Source: Pochonia chlamydosporia 170
Lineage: Eukaryota > Ascomycota > Sordariomycetes > Hypocreales > Clavicipitaceae
Reading direction: 5' to 3'
NCBI RefSeq assembly: GCF_001653235.2
Contig: NW_019154056.1
Location: 1 to 64,000 of the forward strand
Length of the DNA: 64,000 bases
Shown: piece after piece, positions 2,813 to 51,757 of the stretch
Layout: the number at the start of each line of letters is the position of its first letter
Numbering within the stretch: the stretch's first letter is position 1
Notes under the pieces: generated by a model
The model's input: the letters and a program-made list of their open reading frames with translations, nothing else
Told to the model about the DNA's origin: nothing
Databases searched by the model: none
Position numbers and translations under genes: made by a program

Positions 2813-4356
2813 CTTCACGATTGCTTTGCAAAACTGAGCAACAATAGGGCGGAAGATCCCCTGTGAATCAGGCAACGAGAGACTCTTGATTTTTCTATCT
2901 CAAGGACGGAATCATGCGAGATTAAATACTTATTGGAATACTGCTGCGCACGCAGCAGTATTCCGATTCCCTATTGCCACTTTGCCACACTCGCATGTTT
3001 GCTTGACTAAGGCAGCATTATCTGACAATGGCATATTATGCTTACTTTGAATGAGCGACCTGATCCTGACAGGCAAGAACGTGGGAAAGAAGGCGGTCGG
3101 GGTTTGAGGCTCTGCTGGACGACGCTGAGGCCACAGTCCCAGCACCCTGGCTCGATGTTACGCCAATTAACCTTAGCTCAAGAGATGGCGCTTCTAGAAT
3201 TTGCCGAAAATGAGAGAGAGCAAAGAAGCGACGGCAGACTGCCCGGACGGAGAACTGGTGAGGCATTGCGGACCGCACTGACGACCCCAGCGGTCGCTCG
3301 AAGAGCATTCTACAAGCAAGATGCGATGCATTCTTTATTGCAGTGACATTTGATCATGGAATTTCGCTTCTGGCAAAGTTGCCTACCTAAGATTGGCGAC
3401 AGTGGGCACCATCGCTACACGGCCGTAGCCAACCACGAAACCGATGTAGCTGCGGTTTTTCCTCCACTGTGCAAGGAGGCTGTCGGTACTTTGCTCATTA
3501 TCTGGTAATCCATTTGCGGCCGCCTTAGTAGGCTCCGAGAATGCCCTACTACTCAGAGTGACCCCGACCGATTCAGACCACCCAATCCGACTGGCGCCCC
3601 TGCTCTGTCGAAAATCGTCCGTCGATCGGTCTGCGGTCTGAAGGTGGTCTGCCAGACAGTCGGTTTGTTAACCACACTGGGCAAATCCACGGAGACAAAT
3701 GCTGGCTGACACGAAGGCTAGTGGGTATGGGTAGTCATCGACGACCTTATATACAGCTGGTCGGTGTTGGAGGAAGCCTCCTGGTTGTCCCCTTTCGGCG
3801 GACATATTGCAGCGCGTAGAATCTTTGCTCTTGATGGGTTTCATGCCCAGGCTTTGAGGATGGCGGACAGCAGCAGTGATTAAGGACGTGGAGGCAGGCC
3901 TGTTGGTTGGGGTATTCCACTAGCAATCAGCCACCTTTAGCGAGAGAGGGAAGTTTCTCAGGACGCTGAACCAGCGAGGGTGGAGGCAGCACTGGCAAGC
4001 CTTGCCTCATCAACCTGCTCTCTACACACCTCCAGGCCGTTACAGGCAGGTCAGGAACGCCTGTTTGGCATGTCGCGCCTACGGGCGTTGCGGGAAACCA
4101 GATATCAATGAATAAGGCCTTCAAGCCCTCTCGGCCATTGATAAGGCCCGGCTCCAGAAGAAGTTGAAGGATATCAAGCACCTGATCTACAAGATAAATA
4201 ATACCAAGAATGCCTATAGCACTGGACCAGAACCTAGATAATGCTATATCGATAATGGTCTGCCCGCGGACGCACAGCCTTTGGGTGATGCGGACTGCTC
4301 TAAAGTGCGAGGGGTGACGTAACTAGTATTTTAATTATACACCAACAAAAGCGGCG
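2813..4356. other. Intergenic, no gene seen
   Basis: About 1.5 kb with no convincing gene. Short frames at 3038-3346 (+) and 3927-4181 (-) have biased composition, no domain and no supporting introns. The stretch lies downstream of the bZIP gene. Confidence 0.5.
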
Positions 4357-5276: not shown

Positions 5277-5853
5277 AGTGAGGTTTAACGGGATTAAGTC
5301 TTCAAATCAATAATCGCAGTAGTACTTGCATGCAAGCGGGTAGAATCAAGTCCAAGGGGCAGATTCGCATCGTTCACTTGTTCGTGCATTAAAGTAAACA
5401 GTCCCTTGTTGGATGGAGTCATCGCCAACATAGATTTGTACAACTTTAAGCAGCAAAGAGATTTGATACGGTACTATATACGAGTATATATTAATAGAAT
5501 TGAACATCAAAATGATTGACATATATATAATTAAACCCGGTTCTGATTGAGCTAAATGGACATTAATGGTCAATTTGGTCAAGCCGGTTGCCTAGAATTC
5601 AGTCGTTCGCATCCTTGTCATGCGCTGCTGGTTTGTGGCTATCACAGATATCTTGATCATGGTCTGATACAAAGAGAATGTTTGTGGTCAAACTGCATGC
5701 CACATGATGCTGATATGCCTAAAGCAACGGAATCCACTCCGTCCATATCTCGCGATCGGGCGGCATTCAACGGGTAGACTCCAGACATGCTCATGAAGCC
5801 CCCTTTCAAGTCACACTGTTTTACTCAACCAGCTTCGAGCTAGACTAATCTTG
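5277..5853. other. bZIP promoter and intergenic, no gene seen
   Basis: Upstream region of the bZIP gene, AT-rich around 5460-5545. No further feature is evident. Confidence 0.5.
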
Positions 5854-6086
5854 TCGGATAATTATGCCTCTGTTGATTGAACACGCAAACTTGGTGTAAT
5901 TGCTAGTTGTCATAACGTCGGCTATTAAGAATGAAGATAGCCGGAAAAAGCAAATATAAGGTCCGGATGAAAGGAAGTTGTGTCAACGAATTTATCACTG
6001 GCACATACTGTAAGTACTGTACCTGTGTGCCACAATACAAAATAACGTGGCTAACTACAGTACTTTGTGAGTCTCATAACATGACA
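5854..6086 (+). repeat. Solo LTR-like repeat, family L2
   Basis: Begins TGTCGGATAA and ends ATAACATGACA, so the termini form a TGTC...GACA inverted pair. It shares ordered blocks with copies at 10969-11200, 51532-51757 and 38712-38927, and with fragments near 28105 and 31689. Flanking 5-mers (aatct and attct) match at four of five positions, which may be a decayed target duplication. No internal coding region is attached. Confidence 0.7.
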
Positions 6087-10718: not shown

Positions 10719-10968
10719 CGACTAGACCAGAAATGGCAATTGCAGTCCAGAGTAGTCCTTCGGCCTGGAAAATGGGTGCTTGATTGTTTTGCCTTTTACG
10801 ACAGAGAACGCTGCCTAGAGGAAACAGCGGGAATTTGGGCCACCGCCCTAATGGGCTCTGAGAGTGGCTGACCTTCTCCACGGCATTTCTGGACAGGAGA
10901 CCGGTCCCTGAAGGGGACCGCCAATGCCTTGAGGAACGGACTAGAGTGGGCGGGAACTCCCTGGATCT
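10719..10968. other. Spacer between Tc1 element and L2 repeat, no gene seen
   Basis: About 250 bp of host or older repeat sequence. No feature recognised. Confidence 0.4.
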
Positions 10969-11200
10969 TGTCGGATAAAACTGCCTCTGTTGACAGAACA
11001 AGCAAACTTGGTGTAAATGCTGGTTGTCATGACGTCGGCTATGAGAACTGAGAATAGCCGGAAAAAGCAATTATTTGCTTCGGACGAAAGGAAGTGTTCT
11101 GATATTAAAAGGAGAGCTGCAGACTCTGTCTGCAGCTCGAACAACAAGAACAACAATTTTGAAAAAGAGCTTAGTTAACAATGAGTCTCATAACGTGACA
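10969..11200 (+). repeat. Solo LTR-like repeat, family L2
   Basis: Begins TGTCGGATAAAACTGCC and ends CATAACGTGACA. It contains an internal palindrome 'GCTGCAGAC...GTCTGCAGC' near 11112-11138 that is also present in the 51532 copy. No matching flanking 5-mers were found (gatct versus acagt). It ends 22 bp before the OrsD fragment's ATG. Confidence 0.75.
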
Positions 11201-27729: not shown

Positions 27730-28104
27730 CGGTCCGACACGTCAGCAAAACAAAAGACGAGGAATATTGTGGAAGTTTGAGCGTGACTTGATCTGGTTCG
27801 ATTTGGTCCGGATAACCTCACCTTGCCCTCCGAAACGATATGCAGTTTGACACGGGCTACGCCCGATGTGTGTAATTGGTTCATTTGTCGCGTTACGCGG
27901 TTCCAATTCAATTTTTACTACGCTGAAGATGCAGTTCTTGATTCAATAGCCTGTCAATTGCCTGTGTATCCTTGACTTCTTGTCCTTCTCTTGCCAGAGG
28001 GATTCACGTCATTTATCTTAGCAAAGAAGCATTATTTCCAGCCTTCTAATTATTTCCAAGTGGCTGGCCAGCCTCTTCACCTTCTGATATCCATGATTTT
28101 ATGA
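27730..28104. other. Intergenic, no gene seen
   Basis: No recognisable feature. The right part may hold a heavily decayed 3' portion of the L2 repeat at 28105-28162 (a 'ttcacgtcat' word near 28002). Confidence 0.4.
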
Positions 28105-28162
28105 CATCCAGCAATTACTCCAAGTCTGCTTGTTCAATCAACAGAGGCAGCCTTATCCGACA
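28105..28162 (-). repeat. L2 repeat 5' fragment, inverted
   Basis: On the minus strand this reads TGTCGGATAAGGCTGCCTCT and continues through 'GTTGATTGAACAAGCAGAC', closely matching the first 58 bp of the L2 copies at 5854 and 51532. Confidence 0.75.
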
Positions 28163-28338
28163 ATTGGTCTCCAGGGAGAGCGCCTGGCGTTTGATGCCCG
28201 ATCCTGGCCTTCTTGAATCACAAGGCTGACGCCTTCGCTGGTTTTCTCAGGATCATAATGTTTTGGCCATGTGATTGTGTTGCTACACTCCGAACCGTGA
28301 TAAAACAGTTGGCGACGGAGGTAGCACCGCTGGTATAT

Positions 28339-37677: not shown

Positions 37678-38711
37678 GTTGTCTTGTCAAAAGTTGCAGA
37701 CTGTGAGTTTATAGATCGAGTTGGCGATTAGGGACTCAGAGGCAGTATCGAGTTTCAGTGGGTGGGAGTACAAATGGAGGCATGGCGTATCTTATACAAC
37801 CCCCAGGACGAGATAGGAGCTCCATCTCGGACTGCCGCAACTTGAAAGATGCTTCATGGTAAGTGAAGGATCTCAATTGGCGGCCACTTTGGCTTGCCCA
37901 AACTAGCTGCTAATAGTTGCTCTCACAGCTGGAATACCTCCGTCGGTTCAAATCGGGTATTCAAAACAAAACCGGATTCTACGTCGATATTTGGGCGTCC
38001 AACCCTGTCTAGGACTTTGGCAGCGTGAGAAGAAACATAATTTATGCTAGCTCTAATCTCGTATTTGCCTCCTCACGACAACACGATACCCCGCATTACT
38101 CCAATGGCACGGGAGCTAGGTATGTGTGCTCCCCAAATTTTGTCCTCGATCACCCCACCAAGGGCATCCCAGTTAGATATCGAGCAAGCAACCGTTCTGC
38201 CGCCAGGTCGAATAGTTACAGGATCCCAAAGGCCTCCGTTGTGCCACCAAACTGATGCCTCGCCCCGTCTAGTGTTCTGTGCTTGTATGCGACACTATTC
38301 ATCGTCACCTTCTCCATTGCTTTGTGAGCAATGATACAAAACTCGGCTTAAAGGTCTCGATGATAGTCAAGATGCGCACAAAAGGTGAAGGTACTCTACA
38401 CACCTGGCAAGCCACCCGATGAGTATGAGCTTGTGGCACCGGTTGCCGGGTCTGGGAATAAGTTCCCCCATTGCACATTCTCGGCACTGTAAAACAAACC
38501 CAAAGCTGGCTCACATGGAGCCAGGCGGACATAGGGACTCGCCCAGTTGAGCTTGCGGGGGTGGTCAGGGGGGAATGTAAATGAGCCTCTTACAAACTGC
38601 ATACGTGGCTACCCCAGCTTGAGAACAGATCTAGCCGCCCCAATGAGTTCATCCAATCCCAAAATGCATTCAGTTACCGGATAAATATGCATGTATTGGT
38701 AGAACCGGCCA
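37678..38711. other. Fucosidase promoter side; possible gene fragment at 38396-38602
   Basis: The first 300 bp form the promoter of the secreted fucosidase. Further left of the L2 repeat, a minus-strand frame (38602-38396) reads smoothly ('WASPYVRLAPCEPALGLFYS...VQWGNLFPDPATGATSSYSS') and ends at a GTGTGT that could be a splice donor. It may be an exon of an unrecognised gene or gene relic. Confidence 0.4.
37940..37946 (+). promoter_or_regulatory. CCGTCGG site upstream of secreted fucosidase
   Basis: One copy of the 7-mer CCGTCGG, 263 bp upstream of the fucosidase ATG at 37677. The same 7-mer or its complement occurs four times in the promoter of the transporter/fucosidase pair at 58941-59710. 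CCG and CGG half-sites one base apart are of the type bound by fungal Zn2Cys6 regulators. Regulatory function is inference. Confidence 0.35.
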
Positions 38712-38927
38712 ACTGGGTGTAATTGCTAGCTGTCATAACGTCGGCTATTATGATGAAGATAGCCGGGAAAAGAAAATATGAGGATTCGCATGAAGGGAAG
38801 TTATTGGCATTTAAAAAGCCGCAGAAAAATCTGTAGTAGAAGACAAAACCAAGAACAACAAATACATATGAGGGATTTGGTGGTGTGTCAATAAAACATA
38901 GCTAACAATGACTCTCATAACGTGACA
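38712..38927 (+). repeat. L2 repeat, 5'-truncated
   Basis: Similarity to the other L2 copies starts at 'aactgggtgtaattgctagc', about position 45 of the family, and runs to CATAACGTGACA at 38927. The internal A-rich segment differs from the other copies. The 5' end has been lost. Confidence 0.65.
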
Positions 38928-39190: not shown

Positions 39191-41003
39191 CAGTGATGGA
39201 TAGCCACGCTATGAAACTGAAACTGGGGTGAGTTTCAGTTTCATAAACCCGGGCGCCAGTCCAGTTTCAGTTTCATGTGAAACAATATCTAGGTACAGTC
39301 CAAAATCTTTCACAAGATCGGTGCCGATATACACCTTACCTCCAATTACCCCAAAGATGTTTGGCATTGTCTGCCTACCTATACTGCCAATTCCCCAGTC
39401 TCGCCATCACTCTCCGCCCCCTTACCAATCTCTATATCTTCTTGGAGTATCCTTACAGCTGCGTCAATATCCTCCGCTCTCCTGAACACCCCAGCAAGAA
39501 GCGGCCTACTCTTTCCTTTTGGAACACTTATCCAGCTTTTAATGCACTCACATGCCTCCACCATTTTGGCAGACATGTTACTTCTATCCCATGTAACCTG
39601 CCGTCTTGTGCCTGAGAAGATTCGCTCTGCCTCCGTAGACATTGGGGGGACGCAGAATACGTCAATAGCCATACGGCAGAGGAGGGGGTAGTTTTCTCTC
39701 TGGGTCGGTTCAAGCCACCACTCTAAGGCCGTTTGTTGCCCAATCCCGACTTGTGAGCCCTGCGAAGTATCGTCAAAACCTGGCCGTTAGAAAGCTTCGG
39801 GTTACTTACATAAATGAAGCGCTCGAATTCATCCTTCACCTCATTTGATGTGCAATATACCTTCCGCCTCCAGCGATCAAACTCATCGAGTTCTGCCTCA
39901 TTTTCCTGTTGTTTATCTGGGAGCTGGTAGCTCTTGTACTCTGTGGACCAAATCTTCCTTACGGCATCCACGGCATTGCTAACCCAGGCCGGGTTTCTCT
40001 TCCACTGCTCACTCAGATAGCTCTTTCGGAGTGCTGGGTGGAGGAGAATACCGGCCACATACACGGGGGCTAGTTCAGTAAGCTGGTAATACTTCTCGAA
40101 TTTGAGCCAAGCCACGTGAAAGCGGGCGTAGAAGCGTGGGTCACTGAAAGCCCGGTCTTTAGTCTGCGTGAAGTGTTCATGCAGGAAGTCCATGTGGGAG
40201 AGAACTTCATCGAGAGTATTCTCCCGGCCTTGGCGTACCGAGATCTGGTGGAATACCTGTAAGAACGCATGAATATCTCTGAGTTCGTTCCAGTCGTTAT
40301 GGTCTAGTGCATCTTTCTCGATTTTGGCGTGATTTTCTTGAATCCAATCCATGAGCTTTGCCCGTCTCTCAATAGCCACGTCAATGAGGCGAAACCATGA
40401 GTTCCAACGTGTATCATTGTCCCTCGGCAAGGCCCTGCCAATCTTGGCCTTGAAGTCGTTGTAAATGCTGGTAGAGCTTCTTGAATATATGCACAAGTTG
40501 TGGAGTTTGCCTAGAACACTAAACTCCCGCCACTCCTCAGTAGCTTGTGCCTTCGAAATACTGCCTCCTCCTTCTGTTTCGGATAGCCTGCACAGCCGCT
40601 CATACGCCACATCAATCCCCTCTTGTTCATCCTCCTGGATCCTCTTTGCCTTGCTCCGAGAGAGGAAGGTTTGAACGATGAGGTTCATGATATGGCCACT
40701 GCAGCGTAGTCGCTTGGCAACCGGATCTAAACTCTCAATCTCTTTTGCGACATCGTCAAGCATAGTATCGTTAGCATCGTGATTATCCATCGTAAAGTAG
40801 CCAACTTTCCCGCTGAGGTCGTACTCTTCGACAACTTCTAGGAAAACCTTGGCCTGCAATTCCCCATTGTGGCTTCCTTTGAACTCGCGCAGTGACAATA
40901 ACGCTTGGGCGACTTCTCTCGTCTCCGCATCTACAAAATGGGCCACGATTGCCTGGTATGCCGCCTTCTGCTCCGATGAGGAATGGTGAAGTGTGTCGGG
41001 CAA
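39191..41003 (-). mobile_element. hAT-A 3' end with inverted-repeat terminus (partial element)
   Basis: The terminus CAGTGATGGATAGCCACGCT at 39191 is followed by GAAACTGAAAC words (39210-39280), one of them in a 30-bp palindrome around GGGGTGAG. The transposase gene reads towards this end. The element is cut off near 41003 and its 5' end is not present here. A second 3' end of the same family, in opposite orientation, ends at 49930. Flanking 8-mers of the two ends differ (ccataacg and tctattgg), so they are not simply the two ends of one insertion. Confidence 0.75.
39379..41003 (-). pseudogene. hAT-A transposase, N-terminally truncated, one intron
   Basis: Exon 41003-39810 and exon 39759-39379 join in phase through a 50-nt intron (GTAAGT...CTAAC...TCGCAG), giving 'ERFIY-GSQVGIGQQTALEWW'. 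The conserved series is 'AYQAIVAHFVDAETRE', 'GKVGYFTMDNHDANDT' (catalytic Asp), 'RLRCSGHIMNLIVQTFL', 'LPRDNDTRWNSWF' and the dimerisation motif 'MAIDVFCVPPMSTEAERIFSGTRRQVTWDR'. The N-terminal zinc finger and the first catalytic Asp (expected just before 'SSSEQKAAYQ') are absent and no ATG is available. Related to hAT-E by the DNDTRWNSW motif. The retained part is frame-intact, suggesting that truncation was the inactivating event. Confidence 0.82.
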
Positions 41004-41190
41004 AATCCACTGCAGGGGCTAGACCTCAGTGGACGCGCACCTCTCTAGAGCACCTTGGGCTGCTCTAAATCGAAAGTCCTGGTGGGAATGTTCGTGGAAG
41101 AACTGGGAACCCAGGCAAATTTATGAGCGATGGCCAGGATGGCCGAGCTTGCGTAAAGCCCTACCGTGGAGGTCACGGTAGGCATGGCTA

Positions 41191-43687
41191 CAGAGACCCA
41201 ATCAACTACACGACTTACACTGGTTGATCAACTTAGTGTATTACACTCAACTAAATCAACTAAATCAGGACAATCCTGACTAATCAATTAAACTAAATTT
41301 GGGCCTCTCGTGTACGTGGATTTAGTTGATTTCAGTGTAACTGTTGATGGTTAAAGGGCTGCACATTTGATCTCGAACTTAGCTTCAGGGTAGGTTCGGC
41401 TGCGGGCGAGACGACAAGTCAGCTTCCTCCCCCTATTCTACATCCGTAATTTGTATTCTAACCAAAGTGCCTTAAGGTAGAGCCTCCGCTACTGCGTCGT
41501 GCGTCTGTTGATCCTTGGTTGATTGACTTCGGCATCTTTTTACCCATCTTGGAACCGTATTGCCATGTTTTGAATGACGTGTAGCGGAACGATGGCTGAT
41601 GCCTAGTTTATTGAAATATCTTCCTGCTAGCTAGCACCTGCTTGATCATCACATAACACCTATTTCTGGCCATCTACAACAAGTATCATCGCTTCTTTTC
41701 TGTAAGGGGTCGCCGGTCGGCCCCAGTAAGTTCCGTAAGGGGACACGCGGCTCATTCAGCTAACAAAAAAGAGAGAGCAGACGTTCTCGAGGGGTGGACT
41801 CTCTACTATGGTGGTTAACTGGGCAGTCAATGCTCAGGGGCTGGTTGTGAGACCCTCATTTGGTGGCGTTATCAGCATTGCCATCAACCCAGGTGCACGG
41901 CAACGAGTTAGTCCGTGACACTTTCACATTATGTCTTTATGTTTACTATGACCATGAGCGCTTCGGAATTCCTAGAATCGTCCCCAATTTCTATCGATGA
42001 TGTCCCAATTGACTTCGAACTCCCAGTGCCTTCCACGCCTGCTTCTTCTGCCGAGAGCTCATTGACGCCGTTCTCCCCGCCGCCGACGACATTGCCCACT
42101 CCTGATAAGTACGATACGCGTCTTTGGGGACATTTTCCGGGTTGGGTATGGTCAGAAAGAAGCAAAGACAACTACTCATGGGCTTGGGAATATGGATACG
42201 ACATACAACATGACGACGAGCGCAGATGGGTCTGCAAGCCGTGTATTCAGAAGAACGACCCCAGACCTAAGAATTTCGTTGCTATTGGCCTTCAGAATGC
42301 GCTGAATCACTTATACAAGGATCACGGAATATCTGCACCAGATAACAAGACAAAGTCCGGCTTGCAAAAGAAAGCCGAGGAGAAGCCAGGGAGCAAGAGG
42401 CCAAGATCGATTGTGGATATATGGAAGCTCGACCCTTTAAGACCTCGAGAACAGGCGATTGCCAACTCTATGATACGCGGATTTAATCGAAATCACTTTC
42501 AACGTCTCCTGATCGAGTGGATAGTCGACACGAATCAGCCCTTTAGTGTTGTTGAACATGAGAGACTCCGGGATATCTTCGAATACCTTAACCCTGCAGT
42601 CAAGATCACGAACGCCAACATCTCTGATACCACAGTTCGCGCGCTCATCAACTCCGAATTTAAAAAGCACAAGGCGCGCGTCATTGAAGCCCTGCGAAAG
42701 AGCCCCGGCTTAATACACGTCAGCTTTGACGGATGGAGGGCGCGGAATCGACACTCGTTATACGGTATCGTGTGCTTCTTCAGGGACGAGAATAGCAAGC
42801 CCCACAAGGTCGCTCTGGGGGTCCCCGAAGTCCGCAGACATTCGGGGAACAACATTGCAACAGAAGTCCTTTATACCATCGAGGCTTTTGGCATCGAGGA
42901 GAATATTGGGTATTTTACCCTTGACAATGCCGAGAACAACGACACAGCACTTGAGGCTATTGGCAAAAAGCTCGGCTTCAATGGCGCTCGAAGGCGAGGC
43001 CGCTGCTTCGGCCATATAGTCAATCTGTCTGCGAAGGCACTACTGTTCGGGAAGGATACAGACGCGTTCGAAGAACAACTTTCTGGTGCAGAAGCGCTGT
43101 CTGAAGCCGAATACGAACTTTGGCGACAGAAAGGGCCGGTTGGGAAGCTCCATAATTTCGTCGTGGATGTTGATCGATCGGACAGACTGACATACCTGTT
43201 GAAAGAACTTCAAGAGTACGACATATCCATGTCGGACGATCCGAAAATACGGTCAAAAAGCCCCGTCTCGGTAGTGCTAGATAACGATACGCGCTGGCTT
43301 TCCCAGCTCTATATGATCCGCCGCGCCTTGAGACTTCGAAGGTACTTCGAACTGCTAGTCGCGAAGTTCCGAATCCAATGGGAGGAGGAGAATACATCAA
43401 AAAGAACTGGCCAGTTGAAAAAGTCGGCTGTCCGGCCTCGAATCCTTAGAGACGAGAACCAACTTACGGCCAACGATTGGTCTGTACTTCAACACTTCGC
43501 GACGATCCTTGGATACTATGAAGATGCAGTCAAGACTCTAGAAGGCGACGGTTTAATCAGGAAACGCAAGAGGGGTTATACTGGTTCATATGGAAACGTT
43601 TGGGATGTGATCAATGGGTTTGAATTCCTGCTTGGCAAGCTCGAAAAATATAAGGCGATGGCAAAAGATTTTCCTGACCCCGAACAG
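41191..43687 (+). mobile_element. hAT-B copy 1 (B1): 5' two-thirds only
   Basis: Begins with the family terminus CAGAGACCCAATCAACTA at 41191 and is identical, as far as I can read, to the reverse complement of 44963-47460. It stops exactly at 43687, where the 3' terminus of an inverted full-length copy starts with no spacer. Sub-terminal AGTTGAT/ATCAACT words occupy 41205-41345. The left flanking 8-mer is catggcta. Length is 2497 bp against 2498 bp for the matching arm, the difference being one base inside the gene. Confidence 0.93.
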
Positions 43688-43750
43688 CAGAGACCCAATC
43701 AACTAAATCAACTACACGGCATCTGTCAATTTAGAGTAAGTGTAGATTAG
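41939..43750 (+). pseudogene. hAT-B1 transposase, frame open but C-terminus lost
   Basis: From the ATG at 41939 the frame is open and includes the BED-like segment 'RRWVCKPCIQKN...ALNHLYKDHG' and the core motifs 'GLIHVSFDGWRARNRHSLYGIVCFF' (first Asp) and 'ENIGYFTLDNAENNDTA' (second Asp). 'RCFGHIVNLSAKALLFG' and 'DNDTRWLSQLYMIRRALRLRRYF' follow. At 43687 ('DFPDPEQ') the coding sequence is cut by the adjacent element's terminal repeat, and 20 residues of repeat-derived sequence follow before the stop. The dimerisation domain with SAECER is therefore missing. Unlike copy 2, it does not carry the one-base insertion near 46047. Confidence 0.9.
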
Positions 43751-46700
43751 TAATGAAACTTTGAATGTAGTGTATCAACGGACACCTCAAATGTAGTTGA
43801 TTTAAGTGTAGTTGACTTCAGTGGATGGAGGTTTGTGGCGGCATCATCCAGAGTCGCGGCGTAGTGGGGCAGCGCATGATGGCACTAAGTTAACGCGTCT
43901 ACACGTCCACGCGCTTGCTCATACCTCTTTCCTCTTCATCTTGGTTTTCGTGCAATATAGTGGCATTATCTCTTGAGTTGATCTCATCGCGCCCGTGTCA
44001 GGGTTGGCCACAGTGACGCTAACCATCCCCTCGCATTAAAAAGTGTCAGAGACGACATATTCTAACAAATACCTCCCTCTTAGAAGGAGGTGATGTCCAC
44101 TTTTGCTGGCTGGTACAACAAGTAGGGCTTCCCGAGGCTCCTCTGGTGCGAATCTACCTTCGGCTGCTCCCGTCCCCTTCCCTTCATTCACTCTTGTAGC
44201 ACTCGAATCGCCTCTTCAATGGCCAGCTGTTTTCGCCGCGGCAGCGAGCCACGATAGCTCCCGTCTTCTGAACTCATCATCATTAAGATGGATGCCCTCG
44301 AGCTCTTTCTTCTCCTCTATGATCGAGAGAAATAACGGATCTAGGTCGTTGATAATGCCTGCCCGAAACCACGACCTCAATACCTGACACATCCCAACTG
44401 TTTGCGCCTGAAGATTGCACCGTTGGGGAACAACCATCTGCCCTGCTGCCGAGAACATCCTCTCACATTCTGCAGACATTGATTGTATTGTGACAAAGTC
44501 GAGGGCCATTCGGGAGAGACGAGGGTATTGCAGGCGCTTCTCATGCCAATACGCTATCGGATCTCGCACAGTCTTGTCAGTGCTCTCATGGCTCGATTGC
44601 CATCGTTCGTATTCGTCGCCAATCGTGTCGTCGTCCAGTAGAGGCTCTGTCTGTATGGAGTCGATACGGGACTGTTCGCAATGCTCTTCGAAGGCATTGT
44701 AGTATTGCTTCTGTCGTTTTGCAACAGGCTCGTCATTTGAGGCCACCACAATATGGAAATCTCGATAGGACTCGTCCCACACTTCTTGAACTATCCTTTT
44801 TGCAGATCTGATCCAGTCGGGCTTATGTACCCAGGCCTGCTCGAACCATCCCCATCTGTATGCCGGGTGGAGTGCGAGGGCGGTATAATATATCGGTGTT
44901 GTGTCGAGAATAGTGTAATACTTGTCTAATTTCTCCCAGGCCATATTTATGCCGATCCTGAACTGTTCGGGGTCAGGAAAATCTTTTGCCATCGCCTTAT
45001 ATTTTTCGAGCTTGCCAAGCAGGAATTCAAACCCATTGATCACATCCCAAACGTTCCCATATGAACCAGTATAACCCCTCTTGCGTTTCCTGATTAAACC
45101 GTCGCCTTCTAGAGTCTTGACTGCATCTTCATAGTATCCAAGGATCGTCGCGAAGTGTTGAAGTACAGACCAATCGTTGGCCGTAAGTTGGTTCTCGTCT
45201 CTAAGGATTCGAGGCCGGACAGCCGACTTTTTCAACTGGCCAGTTCTTTTTGATGTATTCTCCTCCTCCCATTGGATTCGGAACTTCGCGACTAGCAGTT
45301 CGAAGTACCTTCGAAGTCTCAAGGCGCGGCGGATCATATAGAGCTGGGAAAGCCAGCGCGTATCGTTATCTAGCACTACCGAGACGGGGCTTTTTGACCG
45401 TATTTTCGGATCGTCCGACATGGATATGTCGTACTCTTGAAGTTCTTTCAACAGGTATGTCAGTCTGTCCGATCGATCAACATCCACGACGAAATTATGG
45501 AGCTTCCCAACCGGCCCTTTCTGTCGCCAAAGTTCGTATTCGGCTTCAGACAGCGCTTCTGCACCAGAAAGTTGTTCTTCGAACGCGTCTGTATCCTTCC
45601 CGAACAGTAGTGCCTTCGCAGACAGATTGACTATATGGCCGAAGCAGCGGCCTCGCCTTCGAGCGCCATTGAAGCCGAGCTTTTTGCCAATAGCCTCAAG
45701 TGCTGTGTCGTTGTTCTCGGCATTGTCAAGGGTAAAATACCCAATATTCTCCTCGATGCCAAAAGCCTCGATGGTATAAAGGACTTCTGTTGCAATGTTG
45801 TTCCCCGAATGTCTGCGGACTTCGGGGACCCCCAGAGCGACCTTGTGGGGCTTGCTATTCTCGTCCCTGAAGAAGCACACGATACCGTATAACGAGTGTC
45901 GATTCCGCGCCCTCCATCCGTCAAAGCTGACGTGTATTAAGCCGGGGCTCTTTCGCAGGGCTTCAATGACGCGCGCCTTGTGCTTTTTAAATTCGGAGTT
46001 GATGAGCGCGCGAACTGTGGTATCAGAGATGTTGGCGTTCGTGATCTTTGACTGCAGGGTTAAGGTATTCGAAGATATCCCGGAGTCTCTCATGTTCAAC
46101 AACACTAAAGGGCTGATTCGTGTCGACTATCCACTCGATCAGGAGACGTTGAAAGTGATTTCGATTAAATCCGCGTATCATAGAGTTGGCAATCGCCTGT
46201 TCTCGAGGTCTTAAAGGGTCGAGCTTCCATATATCCACAATCGATCTTGGCCTCTTGCTCCCTGGCTTCTCCTCGGCTTTCTTTTGCAAGCCGGACTTTG
46301 TCTTGTTATCTGGTGCAGATATTCCGTGATCCTTGTATAAGTGATTCAGCGCATTCTGAAGGCCAATAGCAACGAAATTCTTAGGTCTGGGGTCGTTCTT
46401 CTGAATACACGGCTTGCAGACCCATCTGCGCTCGTCGTCATGTTGTATGTCGTATCCATATTCCCAAGCCCATGAGTAGTTGTCTTTGCTTCTTTCTGAC
46501 CATACCCAACCCGGAAAATGTCCCCAAAGACGCGTATCGTACTTATCAGGAGTGGGCAATGTCGTCGGCGGCGGGGAGAACGGCGTCAATGAGCTCTCGG
46601 CAGAAGAAGCAGGCGTGGAAGGCACTGGGAGTTCGAAGTCAATTGGGACATCATCGATAGAAATTGGGGACGATTCTAGGAATTCCGAAGCGCTCATGGT

Positions 46701-47460
46701 CATAGTAAACATAAAGACATAATGTGAAAGTGTCACGGACTAACTCGTTGCCGTGCACCTGGGTTGATGGCAATGCTGATAACGCCACCAAATGAGGGTC
46801 TCACAACCAGCCCCTGAGCATTGACTGCCCAGTTAACCACCATAGTAGAGAGTCCACCCCTCGAGAACGTCTGCTCTCTCTTTTTTGTTAGCTGAATGAG
46901 CCGCGTGTCCCCTTACGGAACTTACTGGGGCCGACCGGCGACCCCTTACAGAAAAGAAGCGATGATACTTGTTGTAGATGGCCAGAAATAGGTGTTATGT
47001 GATGATCAAGCAGGTGCTAGCTAGCAGGAAGATATTTCAATAAACTAGGCATCAGCCATCGTTCCGCTACACGTCATTCAAAACATGGCAATACGGTTCC
47101 AAGATGGGTAAAAAGATGCCGAAGTCAATCAACCAAGGATCAACAGACGCACGACGCAGTAGCGGAGGCTCTACCTTAAGGCACTTTGGTTAGAATACAA
47201 ATTACGGATGTAGAATAGGGGGAGGAAGCTGACTTGTCGTCTCGCCCGCAGCCGAACCTACCCTGAAGCTAAGTTCGAGATCAAATGTGCAGCCCTTTAA
47301 CCATCAACAGTTACACTGAAATCAACTAAATCCACGTACACGAGAGGCCCAAATTTAGTTTAATTGATTAGTCAGGATTGTCCTGATTTAGTTGATTTAG
47401 TTGAGTGTAATACACTAAGTTGATCAACCAGTGTAAGTCGTGTAGTTGATTGGGTCTCTG
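43688..47460 (-). mobile_element. hAT-B copy 2 (B2): full length, 3773 bp
   Basis: The 3' end at 43688 reads CAGAGACCCAATCAACTA and the 5' end at 47460 reads the same 18 bp on the minus strand. Both sub-terminal zones contain AGTTGATTTAGTTGA-type words. The left neighbour is the broken end of copy 1 and the right neighbour (gacacgcc) is a different hAT gene. The 8-bp flanks do not match, so the insertion site has been rearranged. Confidence 0.93.
44216..46712 (-). pseudogene. hAT-B2 transposase, full length with one inserted base
   Basis: Reads from the ATG at 46712 to 44216. It is identical in translation to copy 1 until 'EYLNPAVK', where an extra A on the coding strand (T-run at 46047-46049) shifts the frame; the correct frame resumes at 'ITNANISDTTVRAL'. 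It continues through the core and into the region lost in copy 1: 'INMAWEKLDKYYTILD', 'QYPRLSRMALDFVTIQSMSAECERMFSAAGQMVVPQR' and 'LRSWFRAGI'. Without the extra base it would encode about 830 residues with every hAT domain. This is therefore a nearly intact autonomous copy disabled by a single base, or by a sequencing error. Confidence 0.9.
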
Positions 47461-48863
47461 GACACGCCGGATCTGGAGGAAGATTATGAGTCAAACACTA
47501 CTCTGGGGGAGAGCCAGGATTCGTGCCTACTTCCTGAGATAGTCAATGCCGACAAGATGGAGAAGTATCGCAAGTACGGCCCTTTTGGCAAGTTGCACAA
47601 TATCGGCATTGCGCTTCGAACGAGCAGCCAACTTCTCGAGGACTTTCATGAAGCTCACGGCAAACTGCCCCTGATGAACCCGTATTAACGTGGGTCCAAA
47701 ATGTCTGTACTCGCTGGCAGTCCGATGAGGCCATGGCCTCTCGAGCGCTGCTGAAACGATCCGCTTTGAACCGAATGCTGTCAATTATCGAGGAACGATG
47801 GATTCGCCAAGGCGCCAAAGAACAGGACCGGCCAGCGATATTGAAAGAAAAGCTTTCGCTCTAGGAATGGAAGGTCGTTACTGCGGTTCAGAAGATACTT
47901 CAACCGTTCAAGGTTGCTTCAAAACAACTCCAGGGCGCAGGCATTTCTGGCAAACGCTCAACAACAGGTGGTTTCGAGTACTTTCAAGTGATTGAGATGC
48001 TCCTTGATCACCTTGAGTGGGCCATTCAAGGTGTAATAATCGAAGAGAATGATGATCATATGATGGAAGAGGTTCACTTGTTTGACGACATGGATGCAAA
48101 AACCCGTAGGCTCTTAAAGATTTACATCAAACTCGGTTGGAAAAAACTGAACGATTACTATGATAAACTGACCTCGACCGCCTATGTGGCGGCGGTTGTA
48201 TTCCATCCGAGTAAGAAATGGCGAGCTTTAGAGCAGCTTTGGAATCAGCTGCCGTCTCGTCAGACATCAGGGTGGAAAAAAGCTTACGCCGGGAACTTGA
48301 CAAGCATCTGGGAGGAAAATTACAAGCACATGGCTCACGAGCCAGCCTGCAATGCCATGTCAGCATCTGGAAGCCATGATGCCTTGGACTACATTGAGCG
48401 CCGATTGGCGTTTAGTCGATCAATCGTTCGTCAAGACGCCGAAGGACTACAAAGTAAACGGCCAAAACAGCCAACCGCACTCCCAACACAAGACGAGCTC
48501 GATCAATACCTGTCTGAGCCGCTGGTAGATAACATCGCCTACAAAGCCGATCCGATTGCTTGGTGGAGAGACGTTGGCGCTGTGCGGTTTCCCCAGCTCT
48601 CTTACATGGCGGTTGATTTCCTCACAATTGCGTCGTCTTCCGCCGAAACAGAGAGAGACTTCAGCAGTTGCGGGAGGATGGTCACACCGCTCAGATGCCG
48701 CCTACGACGTCACATAGTTGGCATGGCACAATGCCTTCGATCGTGGAGTAGGGCTGGCATTTATCAACCACATCTCCCTCTAGATCTCCTTGAAGGAGAT
48801 AATTGGAGACAAGTACTTCAGTTAATAGGCAGAGTCAACGGAGATATGAAGGACCAGGACTAG
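47461..48863 (+). pseudogene. hAT-C transposase 3' half, broken
   Basis: Starts abruptly at the end of hAT-B2. It reads '[23 protein letters not shown]', then frameshifts near 47683 into 'TRWQSDEAMASRALLKRS'. It meets an in-frame TAG at 47863 ('KLSL*EWKVV') and then runs open to 48863 through 'KLGWKKLNDYYDKL', 'VRFPQLSYMAVDFLTIASSSAETERDFSSCGRMVTPLRCRL' and 'CLRSWSRAGIYQP'. The dimerisation region is intact, but everything before the KGP/FGKLHN motif is absent from the window. It belongs to the same broad branch as hAT-B and hAT-D. GATCGA words lie just downstream of the stop (48868-48900) and may be its sub-terminal repeats. Confidence 0.82.
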
Positions 48864-49445: not shown

Positions 49446-49741
49446 TGATGGCCATTGACGTATTCTTTATCCCACCGATGTCCACGGAGGCAGAGCGAAT
49501 CTTCTCGGCGCGAGACGGCAGGTCACGTGAGATAGATGCAGTATGTCTGCGGATATGGTAGAGGCATGCGAGTGCATCAGGAGCTGGATAAGCATTCCAA
49601 AAGGGGAAAAGCAGGCCGCTTCTTCCTGGGGTGCCTAGGGCAGCGAAGGATATAGACGTGGCTGTAAGGCTACTGCAGGAAGATTTAGAAATGGATAAGG
49701 GGGCGGACAGTGATGTCGAAGCTGGGGACTTGGTACTATAG
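49446..49741 (+). pseudogene. hAT-A second copy, dimerisation region only
   Basis: Reads 'MMAIDVFFIPPMSTEAERIFSA' and, after a frameshift, 'KGKSRPLLPGVPRAAKDIDVAVRLLQEDLEM' to a TAG at 49739. It is clearly homologous to the C-terminus of the hAT-A gene at 39379-39672. Upstream parts of the gene are absent. Confidence 0.75.
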
Positions 49742-49841
49742 ATAAGCAGACAATACCAACCTCTTCGGGGAGGCAGGAGATACGTTATATACGTGCTGCG
49801 TGCCAGTTAATTCTTTTTTGATCTGCTGCAGAATATAGTTT

Positions 49842-49930
49842 CATATGAAACTGAAATTATACCAGCGTCCGGTGTCATGAAACTGAAACTCACCCCAGTT
49901 TCAGTCTCATAGCGTGTCTATCCAGCACTG
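49842..49930 (-). repeat. hAT-A family 3' terminus (second copy)
   Basis: Read on the minus strand from 49930: CAGTGCTGGATAGACACGCT, then GAAACTGAAAC words and the same GGGGTGAG-centred palindrome as at 39220-39255. It is in inverted orientation relative to the end at 39191. Confidence 0.75.
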
Positions 49931-51531: not shown

Positions 51532-51757
51532 TGTCGGATAAAACTGCCTCTGTTGATAGAACAAGCAAACTTGGTGTAATTGCTGGGTTTCATACTGTCG
51601 GTTATCATGACTAAACTTAACCGAAAAATAGTTTCGGACGAAGGGAAGTTTTCTAGTATTAAAAAGGCAGCTGCAGACAGAGTCTGCAGCACGAGGAAAA
51701 ACATGAATAATAATTTTGAAAAAGAGCTTAGTCAACAATGAGGCTCATAACGTGACA
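51532..51757 (+). repeat. Solo LTR-like repeat, family L2
   Basis: Begins TGTCGGATAAAACTGCC and ends CATAACGTGACA. It carries the GCTGCAGAC...GTCTGCAGC palindrome (51669-51690). No matching flanking 5-mers (tcatg and gaagt). Confidence 0.75.

What the first reader, a model, noticed from the sequence alone, without database searches (positions are those of the whole stretch)
41191..47460. Near-perfect hAT inverted duplication resembling half of a 'double-Ds' structure
A full-length hAT element (43688-47460, minus) abuts, with no intervening base, a 3'-truncated inverted copy (41191-43687, plus). The arms are 2497 and 2498 bp and I see one difference, an extra A. The truncated copy ends exactly where the other copy's CAGAGACCC terminus begins. 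None of the three exposed 8-bp flanks match (catggcta, ccgaacag, gacacgcc). In maize, insertion of Ds into Ds in inverted orientation followed by loss of one end gives half-double Ds, which is linked to chromosome breakage and rearrangement. This may be a fungal equivalent.
Basis: partly seen in the sequence, partly recalled or inferred. Interest (0 to 1): 0.8.

Follow-up and report, generated by a model that had tools for sequence, protein, structure and literature searches.

The report
Transposon inside its twin, assembly seam
In this fungal genome one jumping gene appears to have landed backwards inside a near-identical copy of itself, but the feature that made it look like a broken, chromosome-snapping structure sits on a probable assembly join, so it should not be believed without the raw reads.

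Summary
The layout is in the sequence: a truncated hAT copy E1 (41191-43687, +) abuts a full-length inverted copy E2 (43688-47460, -). The arms differ at two places, not one. The genome is Pochonia chlamydosporia 170. Eleven of 15 gapless full-length copies of this Restless-like element have perfect 8-bp duplications; E2 is one of four that do not.

E2's "extra A" (46047-46049) lies exactly where four other copies have N gaps. Extra A or gap occurs in 0 of 11 copies with intact duplications, in 4 of 6 other two-ended copies (p=0.006), and in 10 of 15 if one-ended copies are counted (p=0.0007). Three lost 8-bp duplications match between separate places. The published assembly is Illumina contigs joined and gap-filled with PacBio. 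Best reading: a nested inverted self-insertion at ccgaacag, like a double Ds, whose right half was wrongly or unverifiably joined at 46048. E1's missing 3' part and the unmatched right flank then need no biology.

Against this: none of the three missing partner junctions was found in the assembly, as a real deletion also predicts; another copy breaks 11 nt from E1's end. Breakage activity is untested. The raw reads would settle it.

The parts
41191..43687 (+). E1: hAT copy, its first 2497 nt (full length elsewhere 3772 nt), truncated at its 3' side; no extra A
43688..47460 (-). E2: full-length hAT copy (3773 nt) in inverted orientation, reading frame broken by the extra A
43680..43687 (+). ccgaacag, last 8 nt of E1 and inferred target site of E2; the expected second copy of this 8-mer next to a terminus was not found in the assembly
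46047..46049 (-). Probable assembly seam inside E2 (AAA instead of AA); same spot as N gaps in four other copies
41183..41190 (+). catggcta, 5' flank of E1, inside repeat R; four R paralogs aligned continue past this point
40994..41190 (.). Repeat R, cut at 41190 by E1
39379..40981 (-). Partial transposase of another hAT-like family (hAT-B), adjoining R; family called from peptide motifs (recalled), no Pfam match to ORF 39723-41018, the one ORF submitted
47461..48863 (+). 3' part of a third hAT family (hAT-C), interrupted at gacacgcc (47461-47468); four other genomic copies run through this point
41948..43750 (+). E1 transposase frame, runs through the junction into E2's terminus and stops
44216..46063 (-). 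E2 transposase frame downstream of the extra A, with hAT dimerisation domain

Best explanation
A recently active Restless-like hAT element of Pochonia chlamydosporia 170 inserted, in inverted orientation, into another copy of itself (E1) at ccgaacag, giving a double-Ds-like nest (inferred from the exact terminus-to-target junction at 43687/43688). E1 itself had landed in repeat R. In the published assembly the nest is followed only as far as about 46048, the middle of E2. There the assembly joined it to the 5' part of another copy that sits in a hAT-C transposon (gacacgcc). On this view the other part of E2, the second ccgaacag and the last 1.28 kb of E1 were dropped or collapsed in assembly, not lost by the fungus. 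Shown: the two-copy layout, the scar at 46048, its association with broken or incomplete copies, and swapped 8-bp duplications elsewhere. Inferred: that the join in E2 is itself wrong and that the nested junction is real.
For: Fifteen copies are full-length and gapless; 11 have identical 8-nt flanks and 4 do not (L030, L036, L043, E2). E2, L036 and L043 carry AAA at position 1412-1414; all 11 copies with intact duplications carry AA. N gaps fall at the same spot in four other copies: in C23 and C12:398237 the element starts with AAGATC right after the gap, in C32 it ends with GTCAA right before it, and C16 shows both sides. Scar or gap: 0 of 11 self-matched copies against 3 of 4 other gapless full-length copies (Fisher p=0.009), 4 of 6 other copies with both ends (p=0.006), and 10 of 15 when copies with only one end are added (p=0.0007). 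Three 8-mers are shared between separate places: CACACATG (C16 and C23), CTCTTGGG (C39 and C12), CTAATAAT (two places on C15), against 0.002 expected by chance. The assembly was ALLPATHS-LG contigs, SSPACE-LongRead, PBJelly, Pilon and manual edits; the paper's 44,215,803 bp in 49 scaffolds equals G000. The continuation of the left-hand host hAT-B, read from a paralog, has no nucleotide match over its next 830 nt anywhere in the window. For the nest being real: E2 starts with its exact terminal base and no gap, N or base change lies at 43687/43688.
Against: None of the three partner pieces that a misjoin should leave elsewhere was found in the assembly: the only terminus within 2 mismatches of ctgttcgg is C39's CTCTTGGG, which has an exact partner of its own; no orphan hAT-C upstream half; no orphan R half starting at catggcta. 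A real deletion predicts the same. L030 lacks the scar yet has mismatched flanks, and so does C15:123458-127306 (AA at the spot, but gapped elsewhere), so mismatched copies also arise otherwise. The larger count (10 of 15) includes copies with one end only, whose flanks cannot self-match. C20 holds a copy cut at position 2509 beside an N gap, only 11 nt from E1's end at 2498 in E2 numbering, so E1's own end might be a recurrent assembly break. E1 and E2 differ at 2405, against E2 being a direct sister copy of E1.
Confidence: 0.5

Rival explanations
1. Real nested insertion followed by real deletion through homologous recombination. E2 recombined with a third, same-direction copy that sat in hAT-C downstream; E2's other part, the rest of E1, the rest of R and the 5' part of hAT-C were lost together.
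For: Explains all three unmatched flanks and the failure to find the three partner pieces in one step. The genome has 15 gapless full-length copies at 99.58% identity or more to E2, good substrates. L030 shows mismatched flanks without a scar.
Against: E2 carries the scar at 46048 that coincides with assembly gaps and occurs in 0 of 11 copies with intact duplications.
Confidence: 0.2
2. The whole palindrome is an assembly product: E1's end and E2's start are two contig ends set side by side.
For: Recurrent break positions exist in this element: 1412-1414, 3033-3035 in C25 and C3, and 2509 in C20, 11 nt from E1's end. Element sequence is noisy at the contig end of C39 and near a break inside C20.
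Against: The junction is clean, gapless and falls on the exact terminal base, which random joins or chimeric reads would rarely do (the rarity is inference). The layout is not that of a missed-adapter palindrome, because a 1275-nt loop separates the arms (inference).
Confidence: 0.18
3. Alternative transposition: the 3' end of a copy already sitting in hAT-C and the 5' end of another copy were used as one pair and inserted into E1 at ccgaacag, giving a true half-double-Ds-like product in one step.
For: Predicts exactly the observed E1-E2-gacacgcc order with one new junction. Such reactions are documented for maize Ac/Ds (PMC4270019, PMC9910405; passages). An intact transposase frame exists in the genome.
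Against: Predicts a partner junction (5' end next to ctgttcgg), not found. Same scar problem at 46048.
Confidence: 0.08

Closest known systems
Restless and Restless-like hAT elements of Hypocreales
   Same: Closest annotated protein is 'restless-like transposase' of P. chlamydosporia 170 (P0002), 100% identity as rounded, with a few residue differences in the fetched sequence; relatives listed in Metarhizium, Hirsutella, Beauveria and Fusarium (best 120 of 215 shown). 8-bp duplications in 11 copies, shared 18-nt termini, hAT dimerisation domain.
   Different: Not compared directly with Restless of Tolypocladium. This frame is a single 828-codon ORF.
Maize double Ds
   Same: A hAT element in inverted orientation inside a second copy, junction at an exact terminus (the maize layout is recalled).
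   Different: The second target copy and the outer half of E1 are not seen, and breakage is not shown. [quoted passage not shown]
Maize half-double Ds / sesqui-Ds (recalled, not found in the papers searched)
   Same: One and a half elements with unmatched outer flanks, as assembled.
   Different: The missing half here lies beyond a probable assembly seam.

Membership tests
hAT superfamily (Restless-like) | 8-bp target site duplication | tested here: met
   11 of 15 gapless full-length copies have identical 8-nt flanks
hAT superfamily (Restless-like) | Terminal inverted repeats | tested here: met
   CAGAGACCCAATCAACTA at 46 places with 0 mismatches, which sort into 23 5' and 23 3' ends
hAT superfamily (Restless-like) | hAT transposase with C-terminal dimerisation domain | tested here: met
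   P0001 matches PF05699, E 8.8e-16; Hermes chains match over the same region, best E 2.4e-6
hAT superfamily (Restless-like) | Catalytic DDE residues | not tested
   No alignment to a solved catalytic core was made
Double Ds-like structure | Second copy in inverted orientation inside the first | tested here: inconclusive
   Junction 43687/43688 exact and clean, but another copy breaks 11 nt away in the assembly
Double Ds-like structure | 8-bp duplication of the inner target and return to the outer copy | tested here: not met
   ctgttcgg next to a terminus not found with fewer than 2 mismatches; the search is of the assembly only
Half-double Ds | True physical loss of one end, unmatched outer flanks | tested here: inconclusive
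   Flanks unmatched, but E2 carries the assembly scar at 46048
Half-double Ds | Transposase-dependent chromosome breakage | not testable with these tools
   Needs a living strain

The most novel reading that the evidence does not exclude
The structure and its siblings are real: Restless-like elements in P. chlamydosporia 170 carry a true half-double-Ds-like unit with a 5' and a 3' end facing the same way 2.5 kb apart, and the family has rearranged the genome by alternative transposition. That includes a 269-kb stretch of scaffold C15 (410767-679557) with the same 8-bp sequence outside its two outer termini, as a macrotransposon would leave.
Probability: 0.1. Interest if true: 0.72.

Novelty: new member of a known kind. 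Interest (0 to 1): 0.3.

Why it matters
If the nest is real, it is a fungal hAT arranged like the maize elements tied to chromosome breakage, in a family young enough that 15 full-length copies are 99.58% or more identical to E2 (E2 itself is one of the 15). If the join is false, scaffold C21 should not be read as continuous across window position 46048, and the same caution holds for other copies with the scar. Matching target duplications, together with the scar, is a cheap audit for any assembly rich in young DNA transposons.

Tried and rejected
Missed-adapter long-read palindrome: rejected, since the arms are not hinged at one point but separated by a 1275-nt loop that is the element's own 3' part.

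C20:113313 as the lost 3' part of E1: rejected, because its outer flank is CCTCCAGG and not CATGGCTA, and it starts at 2509, not just after 2498.

Phasing E2's two parts by shared SNPs: uninformative; apart from the extra A, E2 is identical to L035 on both sides of 46048.

A target-site preference to support ccgaacag: only a weak pattern in 11 sites; ccgaacag scores within their range.

N gaps at 1412-1414 as a shared nested insertion: no sequence common to the far sides of the gaps in C23, C12 and C32 was found.

Paper searches: ('double Ds', 'half-double Ds') listed unrelated fields; led to maize Ac/Ds papers; one search listed four papers, none opened; others (fungal, hAT, nested; Restless) showed no fungal double-Ds report in their listings. 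This is not proof that none is in print.

Full report
WHAT IS THERE. The window holds a hAT element copy E2 (43688-47460, minus strand) directly abutting an inverted partial copy E1 (41191-43687, plus strand). The arms are 2497 and 2498 nt and differ at two places: one extra A in E2 at element position 1412 and a G/A difference at 2405. E1 ends in CCGAACAG; the next base is the first base of E2's 3' terminus. The flanks catggcta, ccgaacag and gacacgcc do not match each other.

WHERE IT IS. The window is positions 1-64000 of contig C21 (237,231 bp) of a 44,215,803-bp, 49-contig genome. The closest protein record is a 'restless-like transposase' of Pochonia chlamydosporia 170 whose longest contig is 237,231 bp. 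The genome paper, PMC5773674 (passages and outline read), reports 49 scaffolds and 44,215,803 bp for strain 170. Its assembly used ALLPATHS-LG contigs, SSPACE-LongRead scaffolding, PBJelly filling with PacBio sequence, Pilon, manual correction and a comparison with a Canu assembly.

THE ELEMENT. An exact 18-nt terminus occurs at 46 places, which I sort by orientation and into 23 5' and 23 3' ends; the outer 8 nt were read at all 46. One copy with intact flanks (L035) has a single 828-codon frame with the hAT dimerisation domain. Among 15 gapless full-length copies, 11 have identical 8-nt flanks: L031, L033, L035, L038, L039, L041, L042, L044, L045, L046, L047. Four do not: L030, L036, L043 and E2. 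Two more copies have both termini but are gapped or internally rearranged (C16:159365-163667, C15:123458-127306); their flanks do not match either.

THE SEAM. E2's extra A is not a private mutation. Of 22 sites read by pattern, 16 read AA and 6 read AAA. The six (C3, C12:407, C15:413113, C16:141039, E2, C39) all lie in copies without self-matching flanks; three of them (C3, C12:407, C39) have only one end. Four further copies (C23, C12:398237, C16:159365-163667, C32) have an N gap at the same spot, the element side ending in GTCAA or starting with AAGATC. Among copies with both ends, scar or gap is present in 4 of 6 with mismatched flanks and 0 of 11 with matching ones (Fisher p=0.006); among gapless full-length copies 3 of 4 against 0 of 11 (p=0.009). 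With one-ended copies that reach the spot added, it is 10 of 15 against 0 of 11 (p=0.0007). The five that read AA are C15:125881, C15:245426, C15:678132, E1 and C31. Copies or fragments that do not reach the spot (C20:113313 and two C20 fragments, C25, C40, C15:512044) were left out, as were the distant relatives at 63-81% identity.

SWAPPED DUPLICATIONS. Setting aside the 11 self-matched copies leaves 12 5' flanks and 12 3' flanks. Three pairs are identical over 8 nt against 0.002 expected: C16:142465 with C23:35747, C39:8374 with C12:398237, C15:679557 with C15:410767. In the first two both members carry the scar or the gap; in the third one does. The simplest account is that element copies were broken at position 1412-1414 in the assembly and re-joined to wrong partners. 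Nine 5' flanks and nine 3' flanks remain without a partner, including the three at this locus.

CONSEQUENCE FOR THE FINDING. The part left of 46048 (left flank, E1, junction, 3' two thirds of E2) and the part right of it (5' third of E2, gacacgcc, hAT-C) may come from different places. The 'half' character then has no independent support. The nested junction itself is clean and exact, which I take as favouring a real inverted self-insertion. One result weakens that: C20 has a copy that starts at position 2509 beside an N gap, 11 nt from E1's end at 2498 (E2 numbering), and C25 and C3 share a break at 3033-3035, so recurrent break positions exist.

THE FLANKS. E1 lies in a short repeat R; the four R paralogs that I aligned continue past catggcta. 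R adjoins an hAT-like fragment (hAT-B). The continuation of hAT-B, read from one paralog (C12), has no nucleotide match in the window over its next 830 nt; beyond that, weak matches of 60-77 nt occur at 39.2, 49.8 and 56.7 kb, and a distant translated match lies at 30.2-30.7 kb. Whether R interrupts hAT-B or hAT-B was already truncated is not known. E2's right flank is a hAT-C copy interrupted at gacacgcc; four other copies run through this point. No orphan half of R or of hAT-C, and no terminus beside ctgttcgg, was found. A real deletion between E2 and a third copy in hAT-C would explain all of that, so I keep it as the main rival.

HOW IT WOULD WORK IF REAL. Inference from maize work: a 5' end and a 3' end facing the same way, here E1's 5' end at 41191 and E2's 3' end at 43688, can be used as a pair by transposase, giving rearrangements or breaks. 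[quoted passage not shown] E1 is cut and E2's frame is shifted as assembled, so transposase would have to come from another copy.

VERDICT. Observation largely right with one correction. Interpretation half right: nest likely, loss of one end doubtful. Confidence in the nest-plus-seam reading is 0.5.

Noticed in passing
G000 C15:410767-414539 and C15:677918-679557 (L036, L052): The same 8-mer (CTAATAAT in element sense) lies outside the two outer termini of a 269-kb stretch; either a macrotransposon or, more likely given the scar in L036, an assembly insertion.
   Followed up: partly
G000 C25:15379-16119 and C3:5182768-5185802 (L060-L062): Two element pieces break at the same 3 nt (element 3033-3035), each next to a few foreign bases and 100 N; outer flanks do not match. 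A second recurrent break position.
   Followed up: partly
G000 C15:244025-245913 (L053, L059; protein P0072): Element truncated at about position 1890 and fused in a gene model to a PIF1-like helicase, suggesting a Helitron junction inside the element.
   Followed up: no
L030 (C31:16004-19775) and L033 (C21:93545-97316): Both copies share five G-to-A changes at 1976-2042; L033 has an intact duplication, L030 mismatched flanks and no scar. A candidate for real ectopic exchange.
   Followed up: no
L045 (C2:6441807-6445592) and L046 (C1:15581-19366): Two copies with intact duplications share a 14-nt insertion near position 1332, a small subfamily.
   Followed up: no
window 39191-39672 and 49448-49930: Inverted pair of hAT-like fragments, 78% identical, on either side of the finding.
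   Followed up: no
window 5848-5978, 10965-11200, 28099-28163, 38678-38849, 51532-51757: A dispersed short repeat, about 70-89% identical, in both orientations.
   Followed up: no
L068/L069 (C15:123458-127306): A copy with both termini whose internal segment (about 940 nt) is inverted, beside 100 N.
   Followed up: no
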